Origin: Candidatus Propionivibrio aalborgensis
Lineage (GTDB): Bacteria > Pseudomonadota > Gammaproteobacteria > Burkholderiales > Rhodocyclaceae
Assembly (NCBI RefSeq): GCF_900089945.1
Contig: NZ_FLQY01000268.1
Location: 1 to 33,050, forward strand
Reading direction: 5' to 3'
DNA length: 33,050 bases
Part shown: positions 7,677-29,752 of the stretch, one piece after another
Numbering within the stretch: position 1 is the first letter of the stretch
Layout of the letters: each line of letters opens with the position of its first letter
The notes under the pieces: model-generated
Database searches by the model: none
What the model was told of the DNA's origin: nothing
Seen by the model: only the letters and a program-made list of their open reading frames with translations
Program-made: the position numbers and the translations under genes

Positions 7677-9371
7677 TCAGTAGGCGTAGTAGAGCAGCAG
7701 ATAGGCAAGTAGCAGCACAACCACCCAGATCGCCATGCTGCCGATCGGCCAGGTGCGCGCCAGGGTGCCCTGCGCGCCGTGGTAACGGTCGATGTGCGCG
7801 AATAGCCCCCTGGCGACGGTCTTCAGCCCAGCGGCTACGACCGCTCGCGCATGCTCGAGCACGGAGCCTGCCTTCAGCGACAACTTGTACAGAAAGACGC
7901 GGTAAAACCAGTCGCTGTCGAGGTTGACCGAGCGCAGTTCGGGTGGGTAGATACCGGTGCGCATGAGCACGGCAAATGCGAGCGCCGAGAACACCAGCAG
8001 CTGCAGCTGGGCGACGACGTGCGACGAGGTATAGGGCTGGTAGGTGACCGGGAAAGGCAGGATCGAGTACAGCGCGTCCGGGAAGACGCCGATGCCGATG
8101 CACAGCGCGGCAGCGACGCCCATCGCGATCAGCATGTTGCGCGGCGCCTCCTCGCAGCGTATTCCCGAGTCATGCGAAAAGAAGGCAAAATACGGAATCT
8201 TGATTCCTGCGTGGTGGAAGACGCCGGCAGAGGCGAACAGCAGCACCAGCCAAGTCAGCAGCAGACCCTCGTCGGCCGCGGCGGACATGATCATCGATTT
8301 GGTGACAAAACCGCTGAACAGCGGGAACGCCGAGATCGAAGCCGCGCCGACGATGCAGAAGCCGGTCGTCCAGGGCATCGATTTGTATAGTCCGCCCAGT
8401 TCGCTGCCCTTGACCGTGCCGGTACGCAACAGCACCGCGCCCATCGACATGAACAACAGGCCTTTGAACAGGATGTCGGCGAAGGCATGCGCCACCGCGC
8501 CGTTGATCGCCAGCTCGCTGCCGATTCCGATGCCGACCACCATGAAGCCCAACTGGTTGTTCATGCTGTAGGCCAGTACCCGACGCAGGTCGTTTTCGAT
8601 GACCGCATAGAAAATCGGGAAGGCTGCCATCAGGGTGCCGATCCAGATCAGCATCTCGGTGCCTGGGTAGGCGCGCGCCAGCGCGTAGATACCCAGCTTG
8701 GTGGTGAACGCCGAGAGGATCACGGCGCCGGTGGGAGTCGCATCCGGGTAGGCGTCCTGAAGCCAGTTATGCAGCAGCGGGAAGGCACACTTGATCCCGA
8801 AAGCGATCAGGATCAGTGTTCCGGCGAGGCCCGAAAGACCGATGTGGCCGAATGCCAGCGATCCGGTTGCCCGCCAGTGCAGGAGCCCGCCGGCGAGCAG
8901 GAACATTCCCGAAAGTAGCTGCACCACGACATAGCGTAAACCGGTGCGGAAAGTGGTATCGGTGCGCTGCGCCCAGATCAGCAGCACCGACGAAACGGCC
9001 GTGAGTTCCCAAAACATGAACAGCGTCATCAGATCGCCCGCGAACACCGCGCCGATCGAGCTACCGGCGTAAACGAGTCCGGCGACGTGCTGCATCGTGT
9101 CCTTGAGATGGATCGCGTAGATCACGTTGAGCAGCGAGGCGAGTACGAAAATGTAGCCGAAGAGCAGACTCAAACGGTCGACGCGCATCAGCACCAGTGT
9201 CTGACCGAGCAGTTCGACCTGGCCGAACTCGCCGTACGGCAGCGCAAGCAGATACGCGAAAGCGATTATCGGCAGCAGCAACATGTAGGCGGTACGCAGC
9301 CGACCCCGCAGGAAGGGCACCGCTACGGCGCCCAGAACAAAGATCAGCGCGACAGGAAAGTCACCGCTCAT
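7677..9371 (-). CDS. Third antiporter-like (MrpD/NuoN-type) subunit, last gene of the Mrp operon
   Basis: A 564-residue proton-conducting transporter of the complex I/Mrp antiporter superfamily, with about 14-16 membrane spans. It keeps the two charged residues expected of an active half-channel: Glu in LFMFWELTAVSS (TM5-like) and Lys in FGIKCAFPLLHNWLQDAYP (TM7-like), plus a further Lys in FTTKLGIYAL. ATG 9371 is chosen over GTG 9386 because GAGG lies 6 nt upstream; this start overlaps the preceding small gene by 11 nt. It is longer than the two sister subunits, with a C-terminal extension ending in a hydrophobic helix. It is the most divergent of the three antiporter subunits in this operon. 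Confidence 0.88.
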   Translation of the reverse strand: MSGDFPVALIFVLGAVAVPFLRGRLRTAYMLLLPIIAFAYLLALPYGEFGQVELLGQTLVLMRVDRLSLLFGYIFVLASLLNVIYAIHLKDTMQHVAGLVYAGSSIGAVFAGDLMTLFMFWELTAVSSVLLIWAQRTDTTFRTGLRYVVVQLLSGMFLLAGGLLHWRATGSLAFGHIGLSGLAGTLILIAFGIKCAFPLLHNWLQDAYPDATPTGAVILSAFTTKLGIYALARAYPGTEMLIWIGTLMAAFPIFYAVIENDLRRVLAYSMNNQLGFMVVGIGIGSELAINGAVAHAFADILFKGLLFMSMGAVLLRTGTVKGSELGGLYKSMPWTTGFCIVGAASISAFPLFSGFVTKSMIMSAAADEGLLLTWLVLLFASAGVFHHAGIKIPYFAFFSHDSGIRCEEAPRNMLIAMGVAAALCIGIGVFPDALYSILPFPVTYQPYTSSHVVAQLQLLVFSALAFAVLMRTGIYPPELRSVNLDSDWFYRVFLYKLSLKAGSVLEHARAVVAAGLKTVARGLFAHIDRYHGAQGTLARTWPIGSMAIWVVVLLLAYLLLYYAY

Positions 9372-9618
9372 AGTAGTCCTCGTCACGCATCAGGATGCGG
9401 CGCAGCTGCTTGGCTACCAGCACCAGCACCACGCAGGCGAAAAAACCGAACAGGCAGTAGAATCCGAACCACGCGGCGAACGCGAATGCCTCGTGCTTGT
9501 GCAACACCAGGTCGATCGCCAGCAGGGCGAGTCCGAGAATGCACAGGCCGCGAAACAGCTTGGTCACGTTCTCGCTGCTGTCCAGCCAATATTCATTAGG
9601 TCCTGACATGGTCGCCAT
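9361..9618 (-). CDS. Small two-span membrane protein inside the Mrp operon
   Basis: An 82-85 residue protein with two hydrophobic segments (about 23-41 and 45-67) and a charged, acidic/tyrosine-rich end (MRDEDYYER). The start is either M1 (9618) or M4 (9609); neither has a strong ribosome site. It lies 19 nt after the second antiporter gene, and its end overlaps the start of the third by 11 nt, so it is clearly part of the operon. I do not recognise a family. A role as a small accessory or assembly subunit of the complex is inference from position only. Confidence 0.75.
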   Translation of the reverse strand: MATMSGPNEYWLDSSENVTKLFRGLCILGLALLAIDLVLHKHEAFAFAAWFGFYCLFGFFACVVLVLVAKQLRRILMRDEDYYER

Positions 9619-9637
9619 CCATAAAGTTGGGCATTGC

Positions 9638-11107
9638 TTAGCGGGGTACCACCAACTGCTCGACCAGTTCCAGCAGCGGGGCCGAGAAAAGGAACAGTGA
9701 CAGGGTGGCCGTGGTGGTCAGCATCAGCGCGACGACCATCAGTCTCGGCGCTTCGCCATGCGGGTGGTGCGCATCTTCTGCCGACAGCGGCCGGAAGAAG
9801 GCCGCGTAAACAATGGGCAGGAAATAGGCCGCGTTGAGCAGGGTGCTGATGATCAGCACCGCCAGCGCGCCGTATTGGCCGGCGTCTGCCGCGCCGGACA
9901 TGATGAACCACTTGCTGATGAAGCCCGCGGCGGGCGGGATGCCGATCAGCGACAGCGCTCCGACGGTGAACGCGGCCATGGTCCATGGCATGCGCCGGCC
10001 GATACCGTCGAGTTGGCTGACCTCGGTCTTGTGGGCGGCGGTGTAGATCGCGCCGGCGGCAAAGAACAGCGTGATTTTGCCCACCGCATGCGTGGCGATG
10101 TGCAGCGCCGCGCCGATGATCGACAAAGGGGCCAGGATTGCTGCGGCGAGAACGATGTAGGAAAGCTGGCTGATCGTCGAGTAGGCCAGCCGGCGCTTCA
10201 GATTGTCGGCGTGAAGCGCTACCACCGAGGAAGCAACGATGGTGAAGCCGGCTATCGCCACCAGCCAGTCGGTGTTCGTTGCGCTGGCCAGCGTCCCCGT
10301 GCCGAAGACGTAGACCACGACCTTCAGCACGCTGAAGACACCGGCCTTGACCACCGCCACGGCGTGCAGGAGAGCGGAAACGGGCGTCGGCGCCACCATC
10401 GCCGCCGGCAGCCAGCGGTGGAAGGGCATCAGCGCCGCCTTGCCGATGCCGAACATGAAGAGTGCCAGCAGTCCGCCGAGCGCAAAGCCGGACAACTTGC
10501 CGTCGAGGATGCCTCCGGAAACGAAATCAAGCGTGCCGGCGACATGCCAGGTGATGGCGATGGCGGGCAGGAGGAACAGCATCGAGGTGCCGATCAGCAG
10601 GCCGAGATAGGTGCGTCCGCCGCGCCTCGCGTCCTCGCTTCCCTTGTGCGTTACCAGCGGATACGTAATCAGGGTCAGCGTCTCGTAGAAAAGGAACAGC
10701 GTCAGCAGATTTGCGGCGAAAGCGATGCCCATTGCGGCGGCCAGCGCGCCGGCGAAGCAGACGTAGAAGCGTGTCTGCTTTTGCTCGTCGTTGCCACGCA
10801 TGTAGCCAATCGAATACAGCGAGTTGACGATCCACAGGCCGCTCGCCACCAGCGCGAAGAGCATGCCCAGCGGTTCGACGCGGAAGGCGATCGAGAGTCC
10901 GGGAAACATCTCGAACAAAGTCAGCTCCGGCCGCTCGCCGGCGCTGACCGGCGCCAGCAGGGAAATCACGCAGAAGAAAAGGAGAGTGGCCGTGGACAGC
11001 GTCGCCGTCTCGCGCAGGTTTGGCCGGCGGCCGAGCAGGGCGATGGCCAGCGCCCCGGCCAGCGGCACGATGAGGGCGGCGCCTATGGCGGTTTGCGTAC
11101 CGATCAT
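9638..11107 (-). CDS. Second antiporter-like subunit (MrpA-N/NuoL-like or MrpD-like)
   Basis: A 489-residue proton-pumping subunit of the complex I/Mrp superfamily. Conserved elements are Glu in LFLFYETLTLITYP, Lys in GKAALMPFHRWLPAAM and the stretch VAPTPVSALLHAVAVVKAG, which resembles the MrpA/NuoL version more than the MrpD version. It may therefore supply the function of the missing N-terminal half of MrpA. The frame is open far upstream, but ATG 11107 overlaps the stop of the preceding gene as ATGA, the arrangement seen throughout this operon, with GGCGG as a weak ribosome site. About 14 membrane spans are expected. Confidence 0.9.
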   Translation of the reverse strand: MIGTQTAIGAALIVPLAGALAIALLGRRPNLRETATLSTATLLFFCVISLLAPVSAGERPELTLFEMFPGLSIAFRVEPLGMLFALVASGLWIVNSLYSIGYMRGNDEQKQTRFYVCFAGALAAAMGIAFAANLLTLFLFYETLTLITYPLVTHKGSEDARRGGRTYLGLLIGTSMLFLLPAIAITWHVAGTLDFVSGGILDGKLSGFALGGLLALFMFGIGKAALMPFHRWLPAAMVAPTPVSALLHAVAVVKAGVFSVLKVVVYVFGTGTLASATNTDWLVAIAGFTIVASSVVALHADNLKRRLAYSTISQLSYIVLAAAILAPLSIIGAALHIATHAVGKITLFFAAGAIYTAAHKTEVSQLDGIGRRMPWTMAAFTVGALSLIGIPPAAGFISKWFIMSGAADAGQYGALAVLIISTLLNAAYFLPIVYAAFFRPLSAEDAHHPHGEAPRLMVVALMLTTTATLSLFLFSAPLLELVEQLVVPR

Positions 11108-12576
11108 CCGCCGACCCCGAGCAGCATTTGCGCGGCGCGCGTTGCACCGCCAAGGGTAAAGCGGGTGTCGACGCCGAAATAGATGGACAGGGCTACCATC
11201 AGCCAGGCCGGCACCAGCATCGACCACGGCGCCTCGTTCTTCTCCTGGCTTTCGGGCGGCGGTTCGCGCAGGTAGGCGGCTTCGACGAAGCGCCAGACGT
11301 ACGCGACAGCCAGCAGCGAACTGGCGACGATGAGCGGTACCAGCCACCACCTGCCTGCTTCGAGCGATGCCGTGATGAGCGCCCATTTGCTGACGAAGCC
11401 TGCGGTGCCGGGCACGCCGATCAACGTCAGGCCGGCGATGACGATGCCGAGAGCTGTCACCGGCATGCGGCGCGCAAGTCCGGCGGCGTGACTCAGCGTT
11501 ACGTCACCGGTGCGTAGCATGATGCCGCCGATCAGCATGAACAGCGCGCCCTTGGCCAGCGCGTGATTGAACAGATGAACGATGGCGGCGGAGAGGCCGC
11601 CGACGGAATCCAGCGACAGTCCCAGGGTGATATAGCCGATCTGTGCGACGCTGGAGTAGGCGAACAGGCGCTTCAGATTGTTCTGGTAGATGGCAGCGAG
11701 CGAGGCCGTAATCATGGCCGCGATCGACAATACCAGCAGAATCTGCAGATCCCTGAATACCAGGCTGTCGCCGAATACCGAATAGTAGAAGCGGATTAGC
11801 ACGTACACCGACACCTTGGTCGCCGTGGCCGCCAGAAAGGCGGAAATCGACGACGGCGCGTAGGTGTAGGCGTTGGGCAGCCACAGGTGCAGCGGGAACA
11901 ACGCCAGCTTGAGCGAGATGCCGACGGTGAGGAAGGCCAGCGCCGCAAGCACCGGTCGTTTTTCGGCGACCGCGGGCAGTCGCTGGGCGATGTCGACGAG
12001 GTTGAGCGAGCCGGTCATCAGGTAGAGCAGGCCAACGCCGATGACGATGAAAGTGGCGCCGATTGTGCCCATGATCAGGTACTGGTAGGCCGCGGTCAGG
12101 GCGCGGCGGTCGCGTCCCAGTGCGATCAGCACATAGGTCGACAGCGAGGAAATCTCAAGAAAGACGAAAATGTTGAAGGCGTCGCCGGTGATCGTGATTC
12201 CGAGCAGGCCGGTCAGGCAGAGGGCGAACATGGAGTAGAAGAGGTAGTGCAGCGCCTGCGGCACCTCGGACATCACGCTGCGGCGACTGTAGGGCACCAC
12301 CACCGCTCCGGCAAGGGAAACCAGCACGAGAACGAAGGATGACAGCGCGTCGACGCGGTATTCAATTCCCCAGGGCGGTGGCCAGTTGCCGATATGGTAG
12401 GAGATCGGGCCGAATTCGGCGACCTGTTGCGCCAGCAGGAGGGAGATCAGCAACGATATCCAGGCGACGGTCAGCATCAGGCCGTAGGCGATGCCACCCC
12501 GGCGTACCAGCACCATCAGCGGTGCGGAAATCAGCGGCAGGACGACCTGCAGGGCGGGCAGATGCGCGGCGATCAT
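11104..12576 (-). CDS. mrpD: Mrp antiporter subunit D
   Basis: A 490-residue membrane protein of the NuoM/NuoN/MrpD superfamily with about 14 spans. TM5-like NIFVFLEISSLSTYVL supplies the conserved Glu, and TM7-like ISLKLALFPLHLWLPNAY supplies the Lys of the proton path. Its position directly after mrpC, with an ATGA overlap, is the canonical place for mrpD. Together with MrpC it would form the core of the proton/sodium exchanging module. MrpD is the best match by order, but because two further homologues follow, the division of labour among the three is uncertain. Confidence 0.92.
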   Translation of the reverse strand: MIAAHLPALQVVLPLISAPLMVLVRRGGIAYGLMLTVAWISLLISLLLAQQVAEFGPISYHIGNWPPPWGIEYRVDALSSFVLVLVSLAGAVVVPYSRRSVMSEVPQALHYLFYSMFALCLTGLLGITITGDAFNIFVFLEISSLSTYVLIALGRDRRALTAAYQYLIMGTIGATFIVIGVGLLYLMTGSLNLVDIAQRLPAVAEKRPVLAALAFLTVGISLKLALFPLHLWLPNAYTYAPSSISAFLAATATKVSVYVLIRFYYSVFGDSLVFRDLQILLVLSIAAMITASLAAIYQNNLKRLFAYSSVAQIGYITLGLSLDSVGGLSAAIVHLFNHALAKGALFMLIGGIMLRTGDVTLSHAAGLARRMPVTALGIVIAGLTLIGVPGTAGFVSKWALITASLEAGRWWLVPLIVASSLLAVAYVWRFVEAAYLREPPPESQEKNEAPWSMLVPAWLMVALSIYFGVDTRFTLGGATRAAQMLLGVGG

Positions 12577-12941
12577 TCCTTTTCGCGCTCCCGTTCGTCG
12601 TCGAGCGCAAGAATCTCGTCTTCCTCAATGGTGCCATAGGCTTCGCGGATGCGCACCACCAGCGCCAGTCCGAGCGCCAGTGTCGCCACGCCGACGACGA
12701 TGGCGGTGAGGATTAGCACGTGCGGCAGCGGGTTGGAGTACACCGTGAAGGCTGTGGCGAAGATCGGGGCAGTGCCGCCGATGAGCTTGCCGGGCGAAAT
12801 GTAGAGCAGGTACACAGAGGTCTGGAAAATTCCCAGGCCGACCAGTTTCTTGATCAGGTTGCCGCGCGCGATGAGGATGTAAAGACCCGCCATCAGCAGG
12901 AAGACGGTGATCCAGTAGGCGAAGTGGCTGCCGGTGTTCAT
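12573..12941 (-). CDS. mrpC: Mrp antiporter subunit C (NuoK-like)
   Basis: A 122-residue protein with three membrane spans, homologous to NuoK of complex I. The central segment GLGIFQTSVYLLYIS and the third helix with NPLPHVLILTAIVVGVA are typical of MrpC. The acidic/basic tail (DDEREREKE) is cytoplasmic in the family. Its stop overlaps mrpD by 4 nt, and its start overlaps mrpB by 4 nt (ATGA in both cases). MrpC pairs with MrpD in known Mrp complexes. Confidence 0.93.
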   Translation of the reverse strand: MNTGSHFAYWITVFLLMAGLYILIARGNLIKKLVGLGIFQTSVYLLYISPGKLIGGTAPIFATAFTVYSNPLPHVLILTAIVVGVATLALGLALVVRIREAYGTIEEDEILALDDEREREKE

Positions 12942-13366
12942 TCCGACTCTTGCCTGCCGCGTCCGGCAAACATGTAGAAGATTTTCAGCATCACGCCGGA
13001 AACCGTGGTCGCCACGCCGACTTCGACCCAGAAGATGCCACGGTGCTGGCCTGCCACCGAGTCGGCGGACAGCACGAAGTAGTCGAGGAAGTTGCCATCC
13101 AGGAAGATGCCGGCGATGCCGACGCCGGCGTAGATCAGCACGCCGGCAGCGAGCATCGTTTCGACCAGCCAGCCCGGCACGACCTTGCGCGCCTTGGGCA
13201 GACCGTAGATCAGCGAATAGAAAATGACGGCGGCAGCAGCAATGACGCCGGCCTGGAAGCCGCCACCGGGCCCGAAGTCGCCGTGGAACTGGACGTAGAG
13301 CGCGAACAGCAGCATGAAGGGAATCAGCATCTTAGCAATGACGCGCAGGACGAGATAGCTCTTCAC
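12938..13366 (-). CDS. mrpB: Mrp antiporter subunit B (MnhB domain)
   Basis: A 142-residue, four-span membrane protein of the MnhB/MrpB family. The signature is FHGDFGPGGGFQAGVIAA near residues 28-45, followed by the later conserved GIFWVEVGVATTVSG. The start codon is GTG 13366, overlapping the TGA of the preceding gene as GTGA. MrpB is required for assembly and activity of Mrp complexes in characterised systems. Confidence 0.93.
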   Translation of the reverse strand: MKSYLVLRVIAKMLIPFMLLFALYVQFHGDFGPGGGFQAGVIAAAAVIFYSLIYGLPKARKVVPGWLVETMLAAGVLIYAGVGIAGIFLDGNFLDYFVLSADSVAGQHRGIFWVEVGVATTVSGVMLKIFYMFAGRGRQESE

Positions 13367-13911
13367 TTGATATCCTCGTCATCCTTGCGGCCGATGCGCC
13401 GCCGCAGCAGGGCGATGACACCGATGCCGGCGGTGAACACCACGGTCGTTTCGCCCAGCGTGTCGAAACCGCGATAGCTGGCCAGAACGGCGGTCACCAC
13501 ATTGGGCACGCCGGTTTCACGAGGACCATCCACGAGGTAGCGGGGTACGACGTGTGCGTGGATGGGAGCCGCCGGATCCGAGAATGCCGGCAGGCCGAGC
13601 GTGCCGTAGACCAGTGTGGCGCCGGTCGCCAGGGCCAGCATGAGGGGCAGCCAGGGGCGGTGCAGCGGCTTGGCCTCCTCGCTCTTGCAAAGATGCAGGG
13701 CGCCCAGCAGCAGAACCGTCGAAATGCCGGCGCCGACGGCGGCCTCGGTCATCGCCACATCGACCGCGTCCAGCGCCACCAGCACAGTCGCCATAAGGAA
13801 GCTGTAGATGCCCCCGAGCACCACCACCGCGAACAAATTCCGGCTGCGCGTCAGCGCGACCACGGTGACCGCCATCATTGCCAGCAGCACGTTGATGATC
13901 AGGGTTTCGAT
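13363..13911 (-). CDS. MrpA C-terminal-like subunit with MbhD and MbhE modules
   Basis: A protein of about 182 residues equal to the C-terminal part of a full-length MrpA. An MbhD module (formerly DUF4040; SRNLFAVVVLGGIYS, then MTEAAVGAGISTVLLL) is followed by an MbhE module (VTAVLASYRGFDTLGE). It lacks the large NuoL-like N-terminal part of MrpA. No ATG lies at the expected beginning. Homologues start with a Met at the position occupied here by an ATC codon (13911-13909), and GGGGAG lies 5-6 nt upstream, so I set the start there; the first acceptable GTG (13890) would remove seven residues and has no ribosome site. The gene overlaps the end of mrpG and its stop overlaps mrpB. Confidence 0.85.
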   Translation of the reverse strand: METLIINVLLAMMAVTVVALTRSRNLFAVVVLGGIYSFLMATVLVALDAVDVAMTEAAVGAGISTVLLLGALHLCKSEEAKPLHRPWLPLMLALATGATLVYGTLGLPAFSDPAAPIHAHVVPRYLVDGPRETGVPNVVTAVLASYRGFDTLGETTVVFTAGIGVIALLRRRIGRKDDEDIK

Positions 13912-14228
13912 GGCGGCTCCCCGTCCTCGTCCAGTTGCGGCTGCACCCCGCGCGTCAGCGCCGCCTTGGCCAATGCGTGGGTGGCGGTCGGGCTGGTGAA
14001 CGCAATCAGCAGTACGATGATCAGCAGCTTGGCCGTCACCAGCGTCAAGCCGGCCTGCAACATGAGGCCGAACAGGATCAACCCGGCGCCCAGCGTGTCG
14101 GTGACGCTGGCGGCGTGCATGCGTGTGTAGAAATCCGGCATGCGCAAGAGGCCAAGCGCGCCAACCACGCAAAAGAAGCCGCCAGCCAGCAGGCAGGCCC
14201 AGCTTACCCATTCAAGCAACAGGCTCAC
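13899..14228 (-). CDS. mrpG: Mrp antiporter subunit G
   Basis: A 109-residue, three-span protein of the MnhG/MrpG family. GALGLLRMPDFYTRMHAAS near residues 23-41 is the family signature, and the third helix is followed by a hydrophilic acidic tail (LDEDGEPPSKP). The start is GTG 14228, overlapping the TGA of mrpF as GTGA. MrpG belongs to the E-F-G group that builds one edge of the complex and is needed for full activity. Confidence 0.93.
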   Translation of the reverse strand: MSLLLEWVSWACLLAGGFFCVVGALGLLRMPDFYTRMHAASVTDTLGAGLILFGLMLQAGLTLVTAKLLIIVLLIAFTSPTATHALAKAALTRGVQPQLDEDGEPPSKP

Positions 14229-22181: not shown

Positions 22182-23063
22182 ATGAAACGAATTCTGCTGT
22201 TTCTCGGCACCAATCTGGCCATCGTGCTGGTACTGTCCGTCACCATGCGCCTGCTGGGTGTCGAGCCCTACCTCAACGCCAACGGATTGAACCTCGGTTC
22301 ACTCCTGATCTTTGCGGCTGTCATGGGCTTTGGCGGCTCTTTCATCTCGCTGGCCATATCCAAGTGGTCGGTCAAAAAATCGATGGGTGTACAGGTCATC
22401 GAAACACCGTCGAATTCGACCGAATTCTGGCTGGTCGAGACCATCCGCAAGTATGCGACGGAAGCCGGTATCGAGATGCCGGAGGTCGGAATCTACCAGG
22501 CACCCGAGGTCAACGCTTTTGCTACCGGCATGAGCAAGAACAGTTCGCTGATTGCCGTCTCAACCGGCTTGCTTCAGCAGATGTCGCGCGCGGAGGTCGA
22601 GGCGGTGCTCGGGCACGAGGTGGCACATGCCGCCAACGGCGACATGGTGACGCTGGCGCTGATCCAGGGCGTCGTCAACACCTTTGTCATGTTCCTGTCT
22701 CGCGTCATTGGCCATCTGGTGGACAAGGTCGTGTTCAAGACCGAGCGCGGCCATGGCCCCGCGTTTTTCATCACCATGATCATCGCCGAGCTGGTGCTGG
22801 GCATTCTGGCGTCAATCATCGTCATGTGGTTTTCGCGGCAGCGCGAATTCCGCGCCGATCGCGGAGGTGCGCGCCTGGCTGGTCGGCAAAACATGATCGC
22901 CGCATTGCAGCGCCTGAATGCGCTACATCCGCAACCCTTGCCTGACCGGATGGCCGCGTTCGGTATTGCCGGTGGTGGCGGCAGCGGATTCAAGCGCCTG
23001 TTCATGACCCATCCGCCTTTGGAAGAGCGTATTGCCGCGCTGAAGGCATCGCAGGAGCGGTGA
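22182..23063 (+). CDS. htpX: Membrane zinc metalloprotease HtpX
   Basis: A 293-residue M48-family protease of the inner membrane. Two N-terminal spans (about 4-24 and 34-54) precede the catalytic HEVAH (His145, Glu146, His149). A second hydrophobic pair lies at about 165-220, and the third zinc ligand is expected in REFRAD. HtpX cleaves misfolded membrane proteins and works beside FtsH in membrane quality control. The frame is open upstream, but ATG 22182 has AGGA 6 nt before it and matches the usual MKRI start of the family. The heat-shock promoter at 22085-22113 fits its known RpoH control in other bacteria, though many species also use CpxR. Confidence 0.96.
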
Positions 23064-23087
23064 CTCATCTGCGCCAGCTGAGTTTTT
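23063..23087 (+). terminator. Terminator of htpX
   Basis: A hairpin starts within the htpX stop codon. ACTCA (23063-23067) pairs with TGAGT (23079-23083), and CTG pairs with CAG inside, with one mismatch, leaving a 3-nt loop and then a T5 run. It separates htpX from the convergent djlA gene. Confidence 0.65.
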
Positions 23088-23125
23088 CAGCACCGTCATT
23101 ATTGATGCCTTGACGCGCGATTCAC

Positions 23126-23899
23126 TCAGATCTTCCGGCTCTCCGCGATCAGGTCGTAGGCAAGCTGGATCTCTTTTGCCTGTTCGGTTGCCAATGCGAT
23201 CATGTCTTCCGGCAGGCCCTGTCCGATCAGCTTGTCCGGGTGGTACTGGCTGATCAGCTGGCGATAGGCATGCTTGATTTCCTTGTCGGTGTTGTCTTTT
23301 GTGACTCCCAGGGCTTTGTAGGCGTCGTCCAGCGCGGCGGCTGTTTTGGGCTGACCTGCAGCGAAATGGGACTGGTTCAGCACCATCTCCATCAAATGCC
23401 TGAACGTGGCCGGGTCATAGCCGAGACGCCTGGCGACGTCGGCGAGCACCGTTTCTTCTGCCGGATGAATATGTCCATCCGCCGTCGCCATCACGATCAG
23501 ATAAACCAGCAGTATCTGTCGGAGATGCTTGGTTTTGCCACAAACCGAAATGAATCTGGCGTAAGTCGCCCCGATTTCAAACGCCGGGTCGGCTCCACGC
23601 TTGAACAACGCGATCGCCTGCGCACGGTGTTCTGCGGTCATCCCCAGCTTCTGCATCAACTGTTCGACATGCGCGATTTCGTCTTGCGAGACGTGCCCAT
23701 CCGCCTTGGCCAGTTTGCCCATCGAGATGAACATCGTTTCGAGGAATACGCTCTGACGATTTGCATTCTGCAGCGGGTTTATTCCGCCGGGACCATAGGC
23801 TCGCGAGCGGTCGATCAATGAACCGATAAACAAGCCAAAGAGCGCTCCAAAAAATCCGGAAAAGTAGAAACCAGCGATGAAGAAAATTAACTTGAACAA
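23126..23899 (-). CDS. djlA: Membrane-anchored DnaJ co-chaperone DjlA
   Basis: A 257-residue protein in three parts: an N-terminal glycine-rich membrane segment (FIAGFYFSGFFGALFGLFIG, about 5-28), a TerB-like helical domain (about 50-170, with KADGHVSQDE and TADGHIHPAE repeats) and a C-terminal J domain (about 190-257) with the HPD motif in SQYHPDKL. This is the DjlA architecture at the usual length. DjlA stimulates DnaK at the membrane. The start is TTG 23899, with GGAG 5 nt upstream; no ATG exists near it. It follows the TIR gene on the same strand after 59 nt, so the two may be co-transcribed. Confidence 0.92.
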   Translation of the reverse strand: MFKLIFFIAGFYFSGFFGALFGLFIGSLIDRSRAYGPGGINPLQNANRQSVFLETMFISMGKLAKADGHVSQDEIAHVEQLMQKLGMTAEHRAQAIALFKRGADPAFEIGATYARFISVCGKTKHLRQILLVYLIVMATADGHIHPAEETVLADVARRLGYDPATFRHLMEMVLNQSHFAAGQPKTAAALDDAYKALGVTKDNTDKEIKHAYRQLISQYHPDKLIGQGLPEDMIALATEQAKEIQLAYDLIAESRKI

Positions 23900-23958
23900 G
23901 GTGACTCCAGAAGGTTTTCGGGTTAAAGACGGGGCTGCCTATCCCGATTCGAAAGGAT

Positions 23959-24855
23959 TTAGCGTCCCATCTTGGTGTACGCATCGGGTACGGTCGTCCT
24001 GACGCGGCTCAGAGCGGCGTTTGCCGTCTCTCTCGATTCAAATGGGCCAATCGCCACGACCCACAGGTTTGGAGCAAGCAAAGGGTAGTCATTCGAGTCG
24101 ATCACGGTCGTATCAAGCCCCGCACGGGTGAGCCTGAGGTGATGTCGTTCGGCAGACTGCAGGTCGTCGCGGCCGAACGAGCCGGCAACGACGAGCCAGG
24201 AACCGCCCGGGCGGGTTGCCTCAGCCGTCACGGCGCGATCACGTGCTACTTGCATCGGAATCGACGGCGAGGGGACGTGCTGCTTGCCGGTCTGTAGCGA
24301 CTCGACGACAAAATAGCCCGCAATGCCGATGGCAAAGACGGCAAGGAGTGCAACTAAAACGGTTCGCCGGCCATGCATCGATCGACCTCCGGCTTGACCT
24401 TCAGCTTTGCGTTCCGGCGTAAAGGGCTGGCCGGCTGGTGGCATCTCACGCGCTGATGCGGACGGCTTGCCCAGGATTCGCCGGAGATCCCCGATCAACT
24501 CGGTGAAGCGTTCGGAAGCTTGTCCCGGTTGCCAGCCCGATATGTCAGCGGCCTGGATTTCACGAAACCCGCGCGGAGCGGGCACCTGATCGAGCAGCAC
24601 CGGAACCAGTATCTTGCGCGCCTTCCCCTCGTCGGCCTCCTCCGCAACCCATTGCGATTCAACCGAAGACTGCGACCAGGCGACCACGATGCAGCGGGCA
24701 TCCTGGAGGGCGGTGCCGATGTAGCTTCGCCAGGTCTCTCCCGCCGGGATGCGGCGATCCCAGAAGACCGTCCAGCCCTGTGCCTCGAATTCAGTAACAA
24801 GGCTCTTGATTCTCGCCTCGTCTTCTCGGGAGTAGCTCAGAAAAATGTCTGCCAT
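23959..24855 (-). CDS. TIR domain - transmembrane - SPOR-like domain protein
   Basis: A 298-residue protein. Residues 1-128 form a TIR domain: ADIFLSYSREDE at the start, then FWDRRIPAGETW, and WVAEE with Trp69 and Glu73 at the place of the catalytic glutamate of NAD-cleaving TIR domains. A Pro/Gly/Ala-rich linker leads to a single membrane helix (about 165-184, preceded by HGRR, so TIR inside). The periplasmic part ends in a domain (about 218-298, GSWLVVAGSF ... LWVVAIGPFESRETAN ... TKMGR) that reads like a SPOR peptidoglycan-binding fold. TIR domains cleave NAD+ or make signalling nucleotides in bacterial defence, and SPOR domains bind denuded glycan. The combination suggests an envelope-sensing TIR, which is inference. 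Confidence 0.85.
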   Translation of the reverse strand: MADIFLSYSREDEARIKSLVTEFEAQGWTVFWDRRIPAGETWRSYIGTALQDARCIVVAWSQSSVESQWVAEEADEGKARKILVPVLLDQVPAPRGFREIQAADISGWQPGQASERFTELIGDLRRILGKPSASAREMPPAGQPFTPERKAEGQAGGRSMHGRRTVLVALLAVFAIGIAGYFVVESLQTGKQHVPSPSIPMQVARDRAVTAEATRPGGSWLVVAGSFGRDDLQSAERHHLRLTRAGLDTTVIDSNDYPLLAPNLWVVAIGPFESRETANAALSRVRTTVPDAYTKMGR

Positions 24856-24983
24856 TGCTGTTTCGAGTCTTCCAACAAAACCTACCTGGAATCAGAACAA
24901 GTTGTATGTCATTTCTGGCGCACAATCGACACCTGCCCGGTAGATTTGCAACATACGCCAACGCCCATTTTAAGCGATAGCCG

Positions 24984-26654
24984 TCACGACCGGGCCGCTG
25001 GCGCTGCGGGTCGTTCTGCCGAGGTGGCTCGAAATTCCCGCATATATTTATCCAGGCCCGTGGTTGTGCCGCACACAAACAGGACGTCATCTGCGCGCAC
25101 CTGAAATTCCGGGTCGAACTCCACCAGTACTTCCGTGCCGCGTTCCACCGCCACCACGGCGGATGCGGTTTTCTCGCGGACTTCGGCCTTCCATGGGTGT
25201 CTGCCGACCATTGTGCCTGGCGCCACGCGGGCGAGTTTGAGCCGCTGTTCCACGGTTATCGCGCTCTCGCCCAGCAAATGGTGGGCGAGAATCTGGCCGG
25301 CGACCTGGCCCACCGACAGGGCGAAGTCGGCACCGGCCTGGTAGAGTCGGGCCACATTCGGAGCCAGATTCACGCGCGCGATCAGTCGCACTTCGGGCGC
25401 ATAGTCGCGCACTACCGCGGTGGCGAACACCCCGGCGCTGTCGTTGCTGAGCGCCAGTACTACGGCGCTCGCATTGCGCACCCTGGCGTGTTCCAGGGTG
25501 GCGTGCTCAAGGATGTTGCCAACAACATCGACCTCAGGGTCGGCGCGCACGTCGATCACGATGGTCGTTTCACCGGCATCGTGCAGCATCTCCACCACCT
25601 TGCGTCCGACCGCCCCGTAGCCCGCCACGACAATTGGGCCGTGGAGACGCAGCGGGGTGGCCATGCGTTCGACTCTGGCCAGATTGGCGAGTGCTCCGGC
25701 GACGACCAGGATTGCACCAGCCTCGATACGCGTATCCGGGCCTTCAGCCGAGGCGAAACGACCGCCATTCCATTGCCCGATCACCGTAACGCCGTGGTGT
25801 GCGCGCATGCGCAGGTCGCCGAGACGCTGCCTGGCCAGCGGGCTGCTGGCCTGAACCCGGAAGTCGGCGATGCCGACTCGTTCGCCCAGTAGTTGAAGCC
25901 CTTCCACCTTGGGGCTGATACGCGCGCTGGCGCGAGCCGCCAGGGCCGCACCGAGTACGTGCGAAGGGGTAAACACCGCGGTTGCACCGATCTTTTCCAT
26001 CGGCGGACGGTGCAGCGGATCCTCGGCCAGCGCCAGGATGGGCCCGGTATAGCCGCGTTCCCTGGCCATCATGATGAAGGTCGCATCGGCGTGATCATCG
26101 GCGTTGGTGATCAGCGCTTGCGCAGCCTCGACGCCGCTCAGCATCCCGGGCTGCTCGTCCAGCGCGCCGAAGACCACGTCGTAGCCGCGATCCCGCAGGC
26201 GACGGGCCTGGCGTTCATCCTGTTCCAGAACGACGAACGCCGTGCCGACGCGGCGCAGCTCCTCGACCAGCGAATCCACCGCCGGGCCGTAGCGATGGAT
26301 GAGCACACGTCCGGCCATCTCGGGCAGACTGCCTGGCAGGCGCGCCTCGAAGCGTTCCTCAAAGTAGGGCAGAAAGAATACGGGGAAAATCAGCACGTAA
26401 AAGGACATGCCAACGAGCTGAAAAAATATCACGAACACGATCATCAGCGGATGCGTCCAGCGCGCGTCGCTGCCGTAACCGGTGGTGGTCAGCGTCTCGG
26501 CGGCCCATTCCACGCTGGCCAGGAAGTCGCGCGGCGCATGCTCCAGATAGGTCATGCCAAACATGTAGATCAGGCCGCCCGCAAGGATCACCACGGGAAT
26601 GCTGAGAATCAGTGCGAGCAGGCGCTTTGTCGAACGTTTGAGTTGCGCAGCCAC
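24984..26654 (-). CDS. Potassium channel with two RCK (TrkA-type) domains
   Basis: A 556-residue channel subunit. Two membrane helices (about 12-34 and 68-97) flank a pore loop with the filter TTTGYG (56-61), the second position of the canonical TVGYG being Thr. Two tandem RCK units follow. The first begins at about 115 but has lost the Rossmann glycines (HRYGPA at 120-125). The second begins at about 340 with an intact GYGAVG (345-350) and is followed by a C-terminal RCK_C domain to about 540. Such channels assemble as tetramers gated by nucleotides or ions. ATG 26654 is the start; the frame ends 128 nt before the TIR gene on the same strand. Confidence 0.9.
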   Translation of the reverse strand: MAAQLKRSTKRLLALILSIPVVILAGGLIYMFGMTYLEHAPRDFLASVEWAAETLTTTGYGSDARWTHPLMIVFVIFFQLVGMSFYVLIFPVFFLPYFEERFEARLPGSLPEMAGRVLIHRYGPAVDSLVEELRRVGTAFVVLEQDERQARRLRDRGYDVVFGALDEQPGMLSGVEAAQALITNADDHADATFIMMARERGYTGPILALAEDPLHRPPMEKIGATAVFTPSHVLGAALAARASARISPKVEGLQLLGERVGIADFRVQASSPLARQRLGDLRMRAHHGVTVIGQWNGGRFASAEGPDTRIEAGAILVVAGALANLARVERMATPLRLHGPIVVAGYGAVGRKVVEMLHDAGETTIVIDVRADPEVDVVGNILEHATLEHARVRNASAVVLALSNDSAGVFATAVVRDYAPEVRLIARVNLAPNVARLYQAGADFALSVGQVAGQILAHHLLGESAITVEQRLKLARVAPGTMVGRHPWKAEVREKTASAVVAVERGTEVLVEFDPEFQVRADDVLFVCGTTTGLDKYMREFRATSAERPAAPAARS

Positions 26655-26741
26655 GCTGTTTCTCCGTTAGTTATGGGGGTAATGGTCGGAATCCGGCATC
26701 ATGGACTTTCCGTACCGACAATCCGGCCATTTCCGTGCACT

Positions 26742-27410
26742 TTACTGCGTTCCCGGTGGCTGGAGCATGTCGGTATGAAGCAGCGAAGCGACCGCCTGCG
26801 ACAGCGCTGTGCCCAGCGCAAAATGCTGTTCGACGTCCAGATGCACGCCGTCGACTTTGCTGGAGGTGATGACAGTGTTCGAGTCGAAGAAGTGACACCC
26901 AAGCTCCTGGCATACCCTATGGTAGGCGTCGGCGAGGCCGACGCACCTTCTTTCGCCACCTTCGAACTTCGGAGCGATCGGTCCCTTGGGCGAACCGATG
27001 AGCGGTGGAGCGACTACCAGAACGGGCGGTACGGGCATGCCCGGTTCGATCGGCGCGCTGCGGATGGCGGAAACCAGCGCGGCTATTCCCTGCGCGGAAT
27101 GCCAGGCGTTATACGCGTGCATCGACTGGAAATCATTTGTGCCCAGCAACAGCACGACCAGCGCCAGCGGAGAGTGAATCTCGATACGCTGAGCGAGTCC
27201 GACCAAGCCATTTCTTCCCGGCTTGAACGGATCGTCCCAGACCGTGCGCCGGCCATTGAGGCAGTCTTCGATGACACGCACGCTTGTCCCGGACTGATTG
27301 AGCAGATTCTCCATCACTCCCGGCCAGCGCTGATCAAAGGGCAGCCGCTGGCGAGTGGTCGGGACGATGCCCCACGATAGCGAATCGGCATAAACAAGAA
27401 TGTGCTGCAT
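26742..27410 (-). CDS. SGNH/GDSL-family esterase
   Basis: A 222-residue hydrolase of the SGNH fold. Block I is HILVYADSLSWG with the nucleophile Ser; the usual GDS is ADS here. The block III asparagine is in LLLGTND, and the block V catalytic pair is DGVHLD near the C-terminus. No signal peptide is seen, so it should be cytoplasmic, like arylesterases and lysophospholipase-type relatives. The frame runs on upstream to 27458, but ATG 27410 places block I at the very N-terminus, as in the family. The substrate is unknown. It is 87 nt from the K+ channel gene on the same strand. Confidence 0.87.
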   Translation of the reverse strand: MQHILVYADSLSWGIVPTTRQRLPFDQRWPGVMENLLNQSGTSVRVIEDCLNGRRTVWDDPFKPGRNGLVGLAQRIEIHSPLALVVLLLGTNDFQSMHAYNAWHSAQGIAALVSAIRSAPIEPGMPVPPVLVVAPPLIGSPKGPIAPKFEGGERRCVGLADAYHRVCQELGCHFFDSNTVITSSKVDGVHLDVEQHFALGTALSQAVASLLHTDMLQPPGTQ

Positions 27411-28245: not shown

Positions 28246-28935
28246 TCAGGCTTTGACGCGATATCCAGCTGGGGGTTCAAGTAGTCGTAGTTGTGTTTCC
28301 ACATGACCTTTGCGACGGGCGACGCCATGGTAAGTATTTTCTTCAACGTCCTCATTGCCCCATTGGTGCCAGCCTTCACGTTTGAATCTGGCAAAAAGTT
28401 CGAGATAGGGGCCGGGAGAACAGGACTCAACCAAGTCATAGATTTCGTCTGGTTTTCTGGAATGCTCTCGTTTTCTCGTGCTCAACAAATTTACTTGAGT
28501 TCGCCCGGGACTGAGCGTACGCATGCTGCCTCGAACACCAAATAGTACGAGCTCGGTCACATTCCGGAAATAGAAACCCACGCCGCGTCCGTCCGGCCCG
28601 CCATCCTTGCGAATCTTGTACCAGACGAGATTCGACTTGTACGTAAAACCCCATGCCTCCATTACTTGAAGGCCTTCCTGAAGCAGTGCGTTAGGAACCC
28701 ACAAATAGAGGTGGGATTTTGCCGCGGCCATTTTTGAAACAGGTAAGGCAGCAATTTCCTTGAGTTCCATGGTCGGATAGCGCAACAATCGCCGGTGCTC
28801 CGGGGCCATCTTCCCCGTGCGGTTTTGGAACTGCCACGGTGGATCAGCCAGAATTGTTGAGTATTGCCCTTCTACTTTGGCGATCAAGTCCTCCGACGGA
28901 TTCGGTTCTGCGATGTTGTACACCTTTCCGGCCAT
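28246..28935 (-). CDS. MT-A70-family adenine DNA methyltransferase
   Basis: A 229-residue N6-adenine methyltransferase of the MT-A70 type. The catalytic DPPW is at 31-34 in STILADPPWQF. Other blocks are HLYLWVPNALL and the C-terminal SAM-site segment KPDEIYDLVESCSPGPYLELFAR. It should protect host DNA from the nuclease encoded just upstream. ATG 28935 is preferred, with GGGG 6 nt upstream; a TTG at 28947 would add four residues. The gene starts 15 nt after the nuclease stop, so the two form one unit. Base composition is visibly more A/T-rich than flanking genes, which fits acquisition by transfer. Confidence 0.92.
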   Translation of the reverse strand: MAGKVYNIAEPNPSEDLIAKVEGQYSTILADPPWQFQNRTGKMAPEHRRLLRYPTMELKEIAALPVSKMAAAKSHLYLWVPNALLQEGLQVMEAWGFTYKSNLVWYKIRKDGGPDGRGVGFYFRNVTELVLFGVRGSMRTLSPGRTQVNLLSTRKREHSRKPDEIYDLVESCSPGPYLELFARFKREGWHQWGNEDVEENTYHGVARRKGHVETQLRLLEPPAGYRVKA

Positions 28936-28950
28936 TTGTTGCCCCAATTC

Positions 28951-29679
28951 TCAAACAAGCACTATGTTTTTTGGAATGCCTATCAAAACGAGCGGGCATG
29001 GGTTCCCGACACCCCTATGAACCCGGTCGACCAGTTTTCGCCAATGCGTCGTTGCCTCACCAAACTTGTCGGACACGAAGGCGTTTGCCCAACCGTCGTG
29101 AAACGACGCTTTGGATATTGCTGCCCGTTCAATGAGTTGTTTCTGCCTTGCGGTTGGCGCGTAGTACGCTTGCAGATCCGATAGGGTGTCGATACCCCGT
29201 TTCTTGGCAAAAGCACTCACGATTTCCTTCATCGAGTCTTGAAGCGATTCACCGCGAGTGATAATTCCGCCAATGGAAATCACCCCGTCAGCATGAAGCC
29301 TCTTGAAGTTTTCGAGATCCCGGTCGAAAAATGGATCCTTGTTGTTCCATTCGATTTCGAGCGCAAAAGTTCCGGCCGGGAATTTCTTTACGTGATCGAT
29401 TTCATGCGAGATTGACTCCTTCTCGACGCCATCGACGATCTTCTTTATTTCGAAGTTGTGCTTCTTCCAGCCGTATTCGACGTTGAGCGCTCGTCTCAAT
29501 CTTTGCGTGAGTTCCCCTTCACCGCCACCACCCCGAACCAGCTCCTCGGCAGGGATGGACGCGCCTTCCAGCACCGACTCGATCTCGGTAACCGCTGTTG
29601 CCATGTCGTGCGTCAGAATCGCTTCGGCATGGTGCAAAGTGAGTATTTGGTAGCCGCGTTTCTTCAGTTTTTCGAACAT
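28951..29679 (-). CDS. BglII/BstYI-family type II restriction endonuclease
   Basis: A 242-residue protein matching the BglII/BstYI restriction family. The key block is ALEIEWNNKDPFFDRDLENF, followed by GVISIGGIITRG. Asp95, Glu108 and Glu110 are the likely metal-binding catalytic residues of the PD-(D/E)xK core. BglII and BstYI cut AGATCT and RGATCY, so a GATC-centred site is a reasonable first guess, though not certain. ATG 29679 is chosen; GTG one codon earlier is possible and no good ribosome site is present. It precedes its cognate methyltransferase, an order in which delayed methylase expression must be managed. Confidence 0.9.
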   Translation of the reverse strand: MFEKLKKRGYQILTLHHAEAILTHDMATAVTEIESVLEGASIPAEELVRGGGGEGELTQRLRRALNVEYGWKKHNFEIKKIVDGVEKESISHEIDHVKKFPAGTFALEIEWNNKDPFFDRDLENFKRLHADGVISIGGIITRGESLQDSMKEIVSAFAKKRGIDTLSDLQAYYAPTARQKQLIERAAISKASFHDGWANAFVSDKFGEATTHWRKLVDRVHRGVGNPCPLVLIGIPKNIVLV

Positions 29680-29752
29680 CACGGCATTCTACTGGCATCG
29701 CTGCTGTTTCCTTGACGCACAGCTCTGTGATTCAACGACGCGGTTGGCTCAC

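What the first reader, a model, noticed from the sequence alone, without database searches (positions are those of the whole stretch)
23959..24855. TIR domain joined through a membrane helix to a SPOR-like periplasmic domain
The sequence shows an N-terminal TIR domain with the candidate catalytic Glu73, one transmembrane helix, and a C-terminal segment with SPOR-type pattern (GSWLVVAGSF ... LWVVAIGPFES). Known bacterial TIR proteins usually act as cytoplasmic NAD+-consuming effectors or signal makers in phage defence. A TIR tied to a peptidoglycan-sensing module would point to a protein that reads cell-wall damage outside and changes NAD+ or makes a nucleotide signal inside. I do not know of a described system with this layout.
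Basis: partly seen in the sequence, partly recalled or inferred. Interest (0 to 1): 0.68.

Follow-up and report, generated by a model that had tools for sequence, protein, structure and literature searches.

The report
Membrane TIR enzyme with SPOR domain
This bacterial gene encodes a TIR domain, the kind of NAD+-cutting enzyme used in immunity, tied across the inner membrane to a wall-binding-type SPOR domain; it looks like a small membrane receptor, though its SPOR domain lacks residues that usually grip the cell wall.

Summary
The 298-aa protein at 23959-24855(-) is TIR_2 (res 4-120, E=1.8e-22), one predicted transmembrane helix (166-184) and SPOR (217-286, 27.2 bits, cut-off 21). AlphaFold models fold as a TIR (best Foldseek E-value: AbTir) and as a SPOR (best: RlpA and CwlC SPOR). 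A full-length homologue (55% identity) lies in another family of the same order (G148). Its TIR (76%) and SPOR (51%) are conserved, its linkers are not, so the layout is under selection. It is rare: only these two genomes in my searches. Neighbours are not shared, so it looks like a stand-alone accessory gene. E73 aligns with the Glu of AbTir and is kept in 50 of 50 rows of a similarity-chosen alignment. The TIR belongs to a family of TIR-helix-X proteins with differing C-terminal modules (FGE, TPR, Sel1, WD40, SPOR, unnamed), reminiscent of one-component receptors. My searches of the held paper library found no description of this layout.

The parts
23959..24855 (-). TIR-TM-SPOR gene, 298 aa, ATG start
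   Evidence: ORF; full-length homologue at 55% identity in G148
24496..24846 (-). TIR_2 domain, residues 4-120, predicted cytoplasmic
   Evidence: Pfam 1.8e-22; AF2 model, Foldseek best E-value to AbTir TIR 7uxu
24637..24639 (-). Glu73, aligned with the Glu of NAD+-cleaving TIR domains
   Evidence: HMMER alignment to BtTir, BtpA and AbTir; Glu in 50 of 50 rows of A2
24304..24360 (-). single transmembrane helix, residues 166-184 (predicted)
   Evidence: Kyte-Doolittle 2.74; helix 166-184 in the AF2 model, at low pLDDT
23998..24207 (-). SPOR domain, residues 217-286, predicted periplasmic
   Evidence: Pfam 27.2 bits over cut-off 21; profile hits CwlC and FtsN SPOR; single-sequence AF2 model matches RlpA SPOR at Z 8.7 and CwlC SPOR at TMt 0.72

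Best explanation
A one-piece, single-pass membrane receptor. The SPOR domain sits in the periplasm and binds or is gathered by a ligand there (a peptidoglycan feature or an envelope protein). Gathering the SPOR domains brings TIR domains together on the inner face of the membrane, and the assembled TIR domains use E73 to cleave NAD+, giving NAD+ depletion or an ADP-ribose-type signal that halts growth, most likely as protection against phage or another envelope assault. Shown: domain content, predicted folds, conservation of both domains, the position of E73, unshared neighbours and patchy presence. Inferred: topology (from the helix, its flanking charges and the TIR starting at residue 2-4, which leaves no room for a signal peptide). 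Inferred from TIR family knowledge: NAD+ cleavage and activation by assembly. Open: the ligand and the biological trigger.
For: TIR_2 and SPOR over curated cut-offs. TIR model with best Foldseek E-value to AbTir, and profile closest to BtTir, BtpA/TcpB and AbTir, with W-x3-E aligned. E73 in 50 of 50 rows and W/F/Y at 69 in 49 of 50. Homologue in G148 with TIR 76%, SPOR 51%, helix 38%, linkers 19-25% identical; dN and dS 0.17/2.2 (TIR), 0.41/2.3 (SPOR), 1.1/2.7 (linkers with helix). Basic residues before the helix exceed those after it in this protein (3 v 1), and in 19 of 29 rows with a helix, the reverse in 2, ties in 8. In the tree of 53 TIR domains the ten module labels need 22 changes where 9 is the least possible (shuffled labels 31.3), so modules follow TIR lineage in part but are exchanged; the TIR-SPOR pair is one clade (100/97), and its nearest other row, L040, has a C-terminus without a Pfam match. 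Patchy presence and unshared neighbours.
Against: The two TIR-SPOR proteins lack SPOR polar glycan contacts. No dedicated partner or effector gene was recognised beside it, and nothing here tests NAD+ cleavage. Foldseek lists non-enzymatic-type TIR domains (TLRs, MyD88) close behind AbTir, and the Hydra TRR-2 TIR has a higher TMt (0.82 v 0.71), so the fold does not tell enzyme from scaffold. In the G148 homologue the charges around the helix tie (2 v 2). Defence models match only the TIR part: NCBIfam far below its cut-offs, PADLOC with weak E-values and no cut-off shown. Two genomes is a thin base.
Confidence: 0.5

Rival explanations
1. Peptidoglycan sensor in the strict sense: the SPOR domain binds peptide-free (denuded) glycan made by amidases or phage lysins, and this ligand switches the TIR on.
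For: SPOR model closest to RlpA SPOR, the glycan-bound entry 6i09 included (Z 8.7), and to CwlC. The paper's passages say that many contacts are main-chain, that a Phe stacks on the glycan, and that the residues forming the basic patch differ between SPOR proteins (PMC6895207); the Phe (F227) is kept in both TIR-SPOR proteins, and basic residues elsewhere could make another patch.
Against: Gln and two Args of RlpA are V223, V266 and A268 here and V, V, T in the homologue, while 4 of the 7 other SPOR proteins aligned from the same genome keep the Gln.
Confidence: 0.25
2. The SPOR domain is an address tag or protein-binding module, not a ligand sensor: it parks the TIR at the division site or at an envelope protein, and the trigger acts on the cytoplasmic side.
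For: Missing polar glycan contacts together with a conserved stretch YxLLxPxLWVV leading into strand 3 in both copies suggest a different surface. Other SPOR proteins of this genome also lack the Gln (3 of 7).
Against: Relatives carry many unrelated C-terminal modules, which looks more like changing sensors than changing addresses.
Confidence: 0.3
3. The TIR is a non-enzymatic assembly domain and the protein has a housekeeping role in division or envelope upkeep with the neighbouring djlA and htpX.
For: djlA starts 59 bp downstream on the same strand and htpX lies next beyond it on the other strand. Non-enzymatic TIR domains are also close in fold.
Against: The neighbourhood is not shared with the homologue. 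No full-length match was found in the other 27 genomes of the genus, unlike a housekeeping gene. E73 is invariant in the alignment.
Confidence: 0.12
4. Chance fusion or spurious domain call.
For: The SPOR Pfam score is modest (27.2 bits).
Against: Same layout at 55% identity in another family with both domains conserved, and a SPOR-like fold recovered from a single sequence.
Confidence: 0.02

Closest known systems
AbTir, BtTir and BtpA/TcpB type bacterial TIR NAD+ hydrolases or cyclases
   Same: TIR fold, W-x3-E arrangement, best profile matches and best Foldseek E-value
   Different: As recalled, none of these is tied by one helix to a SPOR domain
SPOR proteins (FtsN, DamX, DedD, RlpA, CwlC)
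   Same: SPOR fold. FtsN, DamX and DedD also have a single helix with SPOR outside (recalled)
   Different: The cytoplasmic part here is a TIR domain, and Gln and two Arg glycan contacts are missing
Thoeris ThsB
   Same: TIR domain of related sequence; weak matches to ThsB models
   Different: No ThsA recognised beside it; the best NCBIfam Thoeris model (ThcB4) scores 31.8 against a cut-off of 220; membrane anchor and SPOR are extra
Animal Toll-like receptors (layout only)
   Same: Sensor-type domain outside, one membrane helix, TIR inside
   Different: Order of domains is reversed (TIR N-terminal), the ectodomain is unrelated, and this TIR keeps a catalytic-type Glu; no claim of common descent of the whole receptor

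Membership tests
TIR domain, NAD+-cleaving type | TIR family match over curated cut-off | tested here: met
   PF13676 80.5 bits against 28; PF01582 21.8 against 21.3
TIR domain, NAD+-cleaving type | TIR fold | tested here: met
   AF2 block pLDDT 85-94 over residues 1-130 but for one block at 72; Foldseek prob 1.00, TMt 0.71 to 7uxu
TIR domain, NAD+-cleaving type | catalytic Glu four residues after an aromatic residue | tested here: met
   W69 and E73 aligned to AbTir and others; Glu in 50 of 50 rows, chosen by similarity. By alignment only; pocket geometry not measured
TIR domain, NAD+-cleaving type | NAD+ cleavage | not testable with these tools
   needs an enzyme assay
SPOR domain | SPOR family match and fold | tested here: met
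   27.2 bits against 21; homologue 29.0 bits; PDB profile hits CwlC (0.0031) and FtsN (0.21) only; RlpA SPOR Z 8.7
SPOR domain | conserved Gln and the Args of RlpA that contact denuded glycan | tested here: not met
   V223, V266, A268 here; V, V, T in the homologue; contacts from passages of PMC6895207. R302 could not be placed; a basic patch from other residues is not excluded
SPOR domain | binding to denuded peptidoglycan, septal localisation | not testable with these tools
   needs pull-down and microscopy
Thoeris (ThsB) | ThsA effector gene next to the TIR gene | tested here: not met
   no ThsA-type domain among the 20 window ORFs that I scanned with Pfam, both neighbours included
Thoeris (ThsB) | Thoeris family model over curated cut-off | tested here: not met
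   NF058526 31.8 bits against 220; PF08937 17.6 against 21.2
Thoeris (ThsB) | a STALD-type effector anywhere in the genome | tested here: inconclusive
   none found, but no control genome rang either

The most novel reading that the evidence does not exclude
This is one member of an undescribed class of bacterial transmembrane TIR receptors: a constant catalytic TIR inside, one helix, and interchangeable extracytoplasmic sensors outside. The SPOR version would detect wall strands stripped or exposed by phage lysins or amidases and trigger NAD+ loss or an ADP-ribose signal, a bacterial counterpart in layout to Toll-like receptors that senses the cell's own damaged wall.
Probability: 0.22. Interest if true: 0.82.

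Novelty: new variant of a known kind. Interest (0 to 1): 0.52.

Why it matters
How bacterial TIR proteins sense their trigger is known in only a few cases (recalled). A TIR enzyme with its own periplasmic domain would put sensor and output in one chain across the inner membrane, making 'what outside the membrane can switch on a bacterial TIR' directly testable. The family also offers natural module differences on a related TIR, so chimeras between relatives could show whether the outer module really controls the enzyme.

Tried and rejected
Operon with djlA, htpX or the potassium channel as functional partners: rejected as general context, since tblastn finds none of them near the G148 homologue (20 kb examined). 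The channel gene and nearly all of the TIR-SPOR gene lie in the stretch between djlA and the GDSL gene that does not align to the 14 kb fetched from same-genus genome G762; the aligned djlA block reaches 34 bases into the 3' end of the TIR-SPOR gene.

Phage or plasmid origin: no match in 50,697 phage records. 15 plasmid records match, none covering 80% of the query and none reaching the SPOR part. IMG/VR gave 5 distant TIR loci and no SPOR relative.

I noticed one TIR tied to another wall-binding module, L087 (ParA-type ATPase by eye, TIR, helix, PASTA), but by eye its TIR has Ala and Gln where W69 and E73 stand, so it is not evidence for a wall-sensing enzyme.

The STALD effector search in the own genome was uninformative because no control rang. 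Promoter and terminator scans of 22900-25100 gave nothing above chance.

Limits of the survey: full-protein genome searches used different E-value limits (1e-3 to 1e-20) and the larger draws scored at most 5 to 7 first-look candidates per genome, so further TIR-SPOR copies may have been missed. The relatives' alignment A2 holds 49 of the 83 loci I listed; the others were dropped for identity under 33%, late start or short match, no hit, or duplication. ORF starts of relatives were chosen by my script. Module labels were set by my own text patterns and by hand, 19 of 53 rows are lumped as 'other', and L104 was labelled 'other' though its end resembles the CysQLGE group. 25 of the 50 inner branches of that tree were open and the bootstrap had not settled. 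My Kyte-Doolittle cut-off misses some helices (L071 and L054 look helical there by eye).

In the VIA-align list unrelated chains come close behind (eIF4E at Z 7.5 after CwlC at 7.9), and FtsN (6.3) and DedD (5.8) are mixed among unrelated rows; the model is from a single sequence with pLDDT 71.

Full report
Observation. The ORF at 23959-24855 on the minus strand encodes 298 aa. Pfam finds TIR_2 at residues 4-120 (1.8e-22, 80.5 bits, cut-off 28) and SPOR at 217-286 (27.2 bits, cut-off 21). One hydrophobic segment lies at 166-184.

Folds. AlphaFold2 on the window protein with seven TIR relatives (the SPOR part had practically no relatives in the alignment) gave block pLDDT of 85-94 over residues 1-130, apart from one block at 72, and 76-82 over 221-290, with low confidence (under 50) at 132-216, helix included. 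Foldseek's best PDB match by E-value for the whole model is the AbTir TIR domain with bound 3AD (7uxu, 2.3e-6, prob 1.00, TMt 0.71); animal TIR domains without known enzyme activity follow closely, and Hydra TRR-2 has a higher TMt (0.82), so the fold alone does not show an enzyme. A model of residues 210-298 from the single sequence (pLDDT 71) has CwlC SPOR and DedD SPOR as the first two Foldseek matches, the first at TMt 0.72 (E 2e-3 and 2.7e-2; none of the 1008 matches reaches 1e-3). In the VIA-align second look the RlpA SPOR structures lead with Z 8.7 over 73 residues, the only two chains at or over Z 8, then CwlC at 7.9, then an unrelated chain at 7.5; FtsN is at 6.3 and DedD at 5.8, among unrelated rows. 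By sequence, a two-row profile of the SPOR part hits only two PDB sequences at E up to 10, CwlC (0.0031, over half of the domain) and FtsN (0.21), both SPOR.

TIR active site. Profile alignments put E73 on a Glu of BtTir, BtpA/TcpB and AbTir, four residues after a Trp. In an alignment of this protein with 49 relatives (A2), F5, D12, V70, E73 and P94 are invariant in 50 of 50, and position 69 is W in 41, F in 4, Y in 4 and A in 1. The rows were chosen by similarity to this protein, so this shows conservation within the family, not across all TIR domains. That the aligned Glu is catalytic in AbTir is recalled knowledge. I did not measure the pocket on the model.

A conserved but rare layout. Genome searches with the full protein covered 101 family, 300 order, 369 class, 28 genus, 398 phylum, 60 G148-family and 67 G148-genus genomes, with overlaps (handles ran up to G1260). 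Full-length matches were found in two genomes only, G000 and G148. A profile of the SPOR part alone, searched in 250 order genomes at E up to 1e-7, found the same two. The two proteins are 76% identical in the TIR, 51% in the SPOR part, 38% in the helix and 19-25% in the two linkers; dN is 0.17, 0.41 and 1.1 for TIR, SPOR and linkers-with-helix, with dS over 2 (saturated) throughout. I conclude that both domains are kept by selection. Within the genus, G000 is the only one of 28 genomes with the layout.

Context. Same-strand djlA starts 59 bp downstream, a TrkA_N/ion-channel gene lies upstream, and htpX lies beyond djlA on the other strand. None of these is found near the G148 copy, whose surroundings include a DNA polymerase III alpha-type gene, two genes between it and the TIR gene that I read as imuA and imuB by eye (Pfam found no match for them), and a TctC-type gene. 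In the same-genus genome G762, djlA (78% over 871 bases) and parts of the GDSL-HxlR-ribonucleotide reductase stretch align to the window, but 23993-26842, which holds the channel gene and all but the last 34 bases of the TIR-SPOR gene, does not. So the gene sits in a variable slot. It has no match in the phage collection and no full-length match on plasmids.

A family with differing C-terminal modules. Relatives share the TIR, in more than half of the rows followed by a helix, and then quite different parts: Pfam finds FGE-sulfatase in 10 of 50, TPR types in up to 8, Sel1 in 2, SPOR in 2, WD40 in 1; several more ends had no Pfam match in the ten relatives scanned one by one. A helix starting at 130-300 is seen in 32 of 53 rows. 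Around it, basic residues are more frequent on the N-terminal side in 19 of 29 rows, less in 2, equal in 8, which favours TIR inside and module outside. The tree of 53 TIR domains needs 22 changes of module label against a minimum of 9 and a shuffled mean of 31.3: modules follow the TIR lineage in part but have been exchanged. TIR-SPOR is one clade (100/97), and its nearest neighbour L040 has another, unnamed C-terminus (half of the inner branches were open, the bootstrap had not settled, and the labels were assigned by me). A kept output domain with a changing outer module is how one-component membrane receptors are built; that reading is inference.

What speaks against wall sensing. In RlpA the side chains of Q270, R302, R309 and R311 contact the denuded glycan; the Gln is described as highly conserved and a basic patch as preserved, though the residues that form it differ between proteins (passages of PMC6895207). 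By alignment these positions are V223 (Gln), V266 (R309) and A268 (R311) here and V, V, T in the G148 protein; the Phe (F227) is kept. R302 I could not place, and a basic patch made by other residues is not excluded. Of 7 other SPOR proteins aligned from this genome, 4 keep the Gln and 3 do not, so lack of the Gln alone is not rare. The stretch YxLLxPxLWVV is shared by both TIR-SPOR proteins and may be a different binding surface.

Mechanism. I favour a single-pass receptor in which a periplasmic event gathers the SPOR domains, the TIR domains assemble and cleave NAD+ with E73, and the cell stops growing. Domain content, predicted folds and conservation are shown. Topology is inferred. NAD+ cleavage and activation by assembly are inferred from TIR families. 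Ligand and trigger are open.

Comparison and novelty. It is a TIR protein and carries a SPOR-fold domain, but lacks the side-chain glycan contacts of RlpA that I could test. It is not Thoeris by the tests made. Searches of the paper library for 'TIR domain' with 'SPOR domain' (0 papers), and related term sets, listed none that I could see describing this layout. I read only passages of PMC6895207, PMC7159879 and PMC8195603, and titles or abstract beginnings of the listed rest. The two comparative papers describe TIR and FGS (FGE) domains in conflict systems; the passages I saw do not describe TIR-helix-SPOR. The library lacks most subscription papers, so the absence is limited to it.

Noticed in passing
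window 28246-29682 (-): A BglII-type restriction endonuclease (Pfam 9.1e-23) next to an MT-A70 methyltransferase (2.6e-31). The stretch is missing from the syntenic place in same-genus genome G762, so it is a second variable slot near the TIR-SPOR gene.
   Followed up: partly
L087 268-2592 (G828): One open frame reads as a ParA/MinD-like ATPase (by eye), a TIR domain, a membrane helix and PASTA domains (Pfam 5e-18); by eye the TIR has Ala and Gln at the positions of W69 and E73.
   Followed up: partly
L041, L085, L104, L105: TIR-helix proteins, TIR about 48-52% identical to this one, ending in a short similar stretch with a Cys, a QLGE or GLGE motif and a second Cys; no Pfam name for it in the two that I scanned, L041 and L085.
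   Followed up: no
L032, L033, L034, L037, L038, L047, L069, L070, L079, L088: TIR joined to FGE-sulfatase-like domains (by my text pattern; Pfam counts 10 of 50), in several with a helix between. FGE (FGS) domains are targets of diversity-generating retroelements in conflict systems of PMC7159879 (passages); I did not look for retroelements here.
   Followed up: no
window 23126-23899 (-): djlA was matched in only 2 of 28 genomes of the genus, the own one included, at E up to 1e-30, although it reads as an ordinary co-chaperone gene.
   Followed up: no
window 7677-14211 (-): A run of Proton_antipo_M genes with MbhD/MbhE, which looks like an Mrp or Mbh-type antiporter operon, beside a Na/H exchanger and, further on, a CLC channel.
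   Followed up: no
L110 about 6100-6400 and 8600-9100 (G762): G/C-rich low-complexity stretches within otherwise alignable genes look like sequence errors in that genome record.
   Followed up: no
L061 (own genome, contig C366): A protein with a FecR-like part (by eye) and a C-terminal SPOR domain that also lacks the conserved Gln.
   Followed up: no
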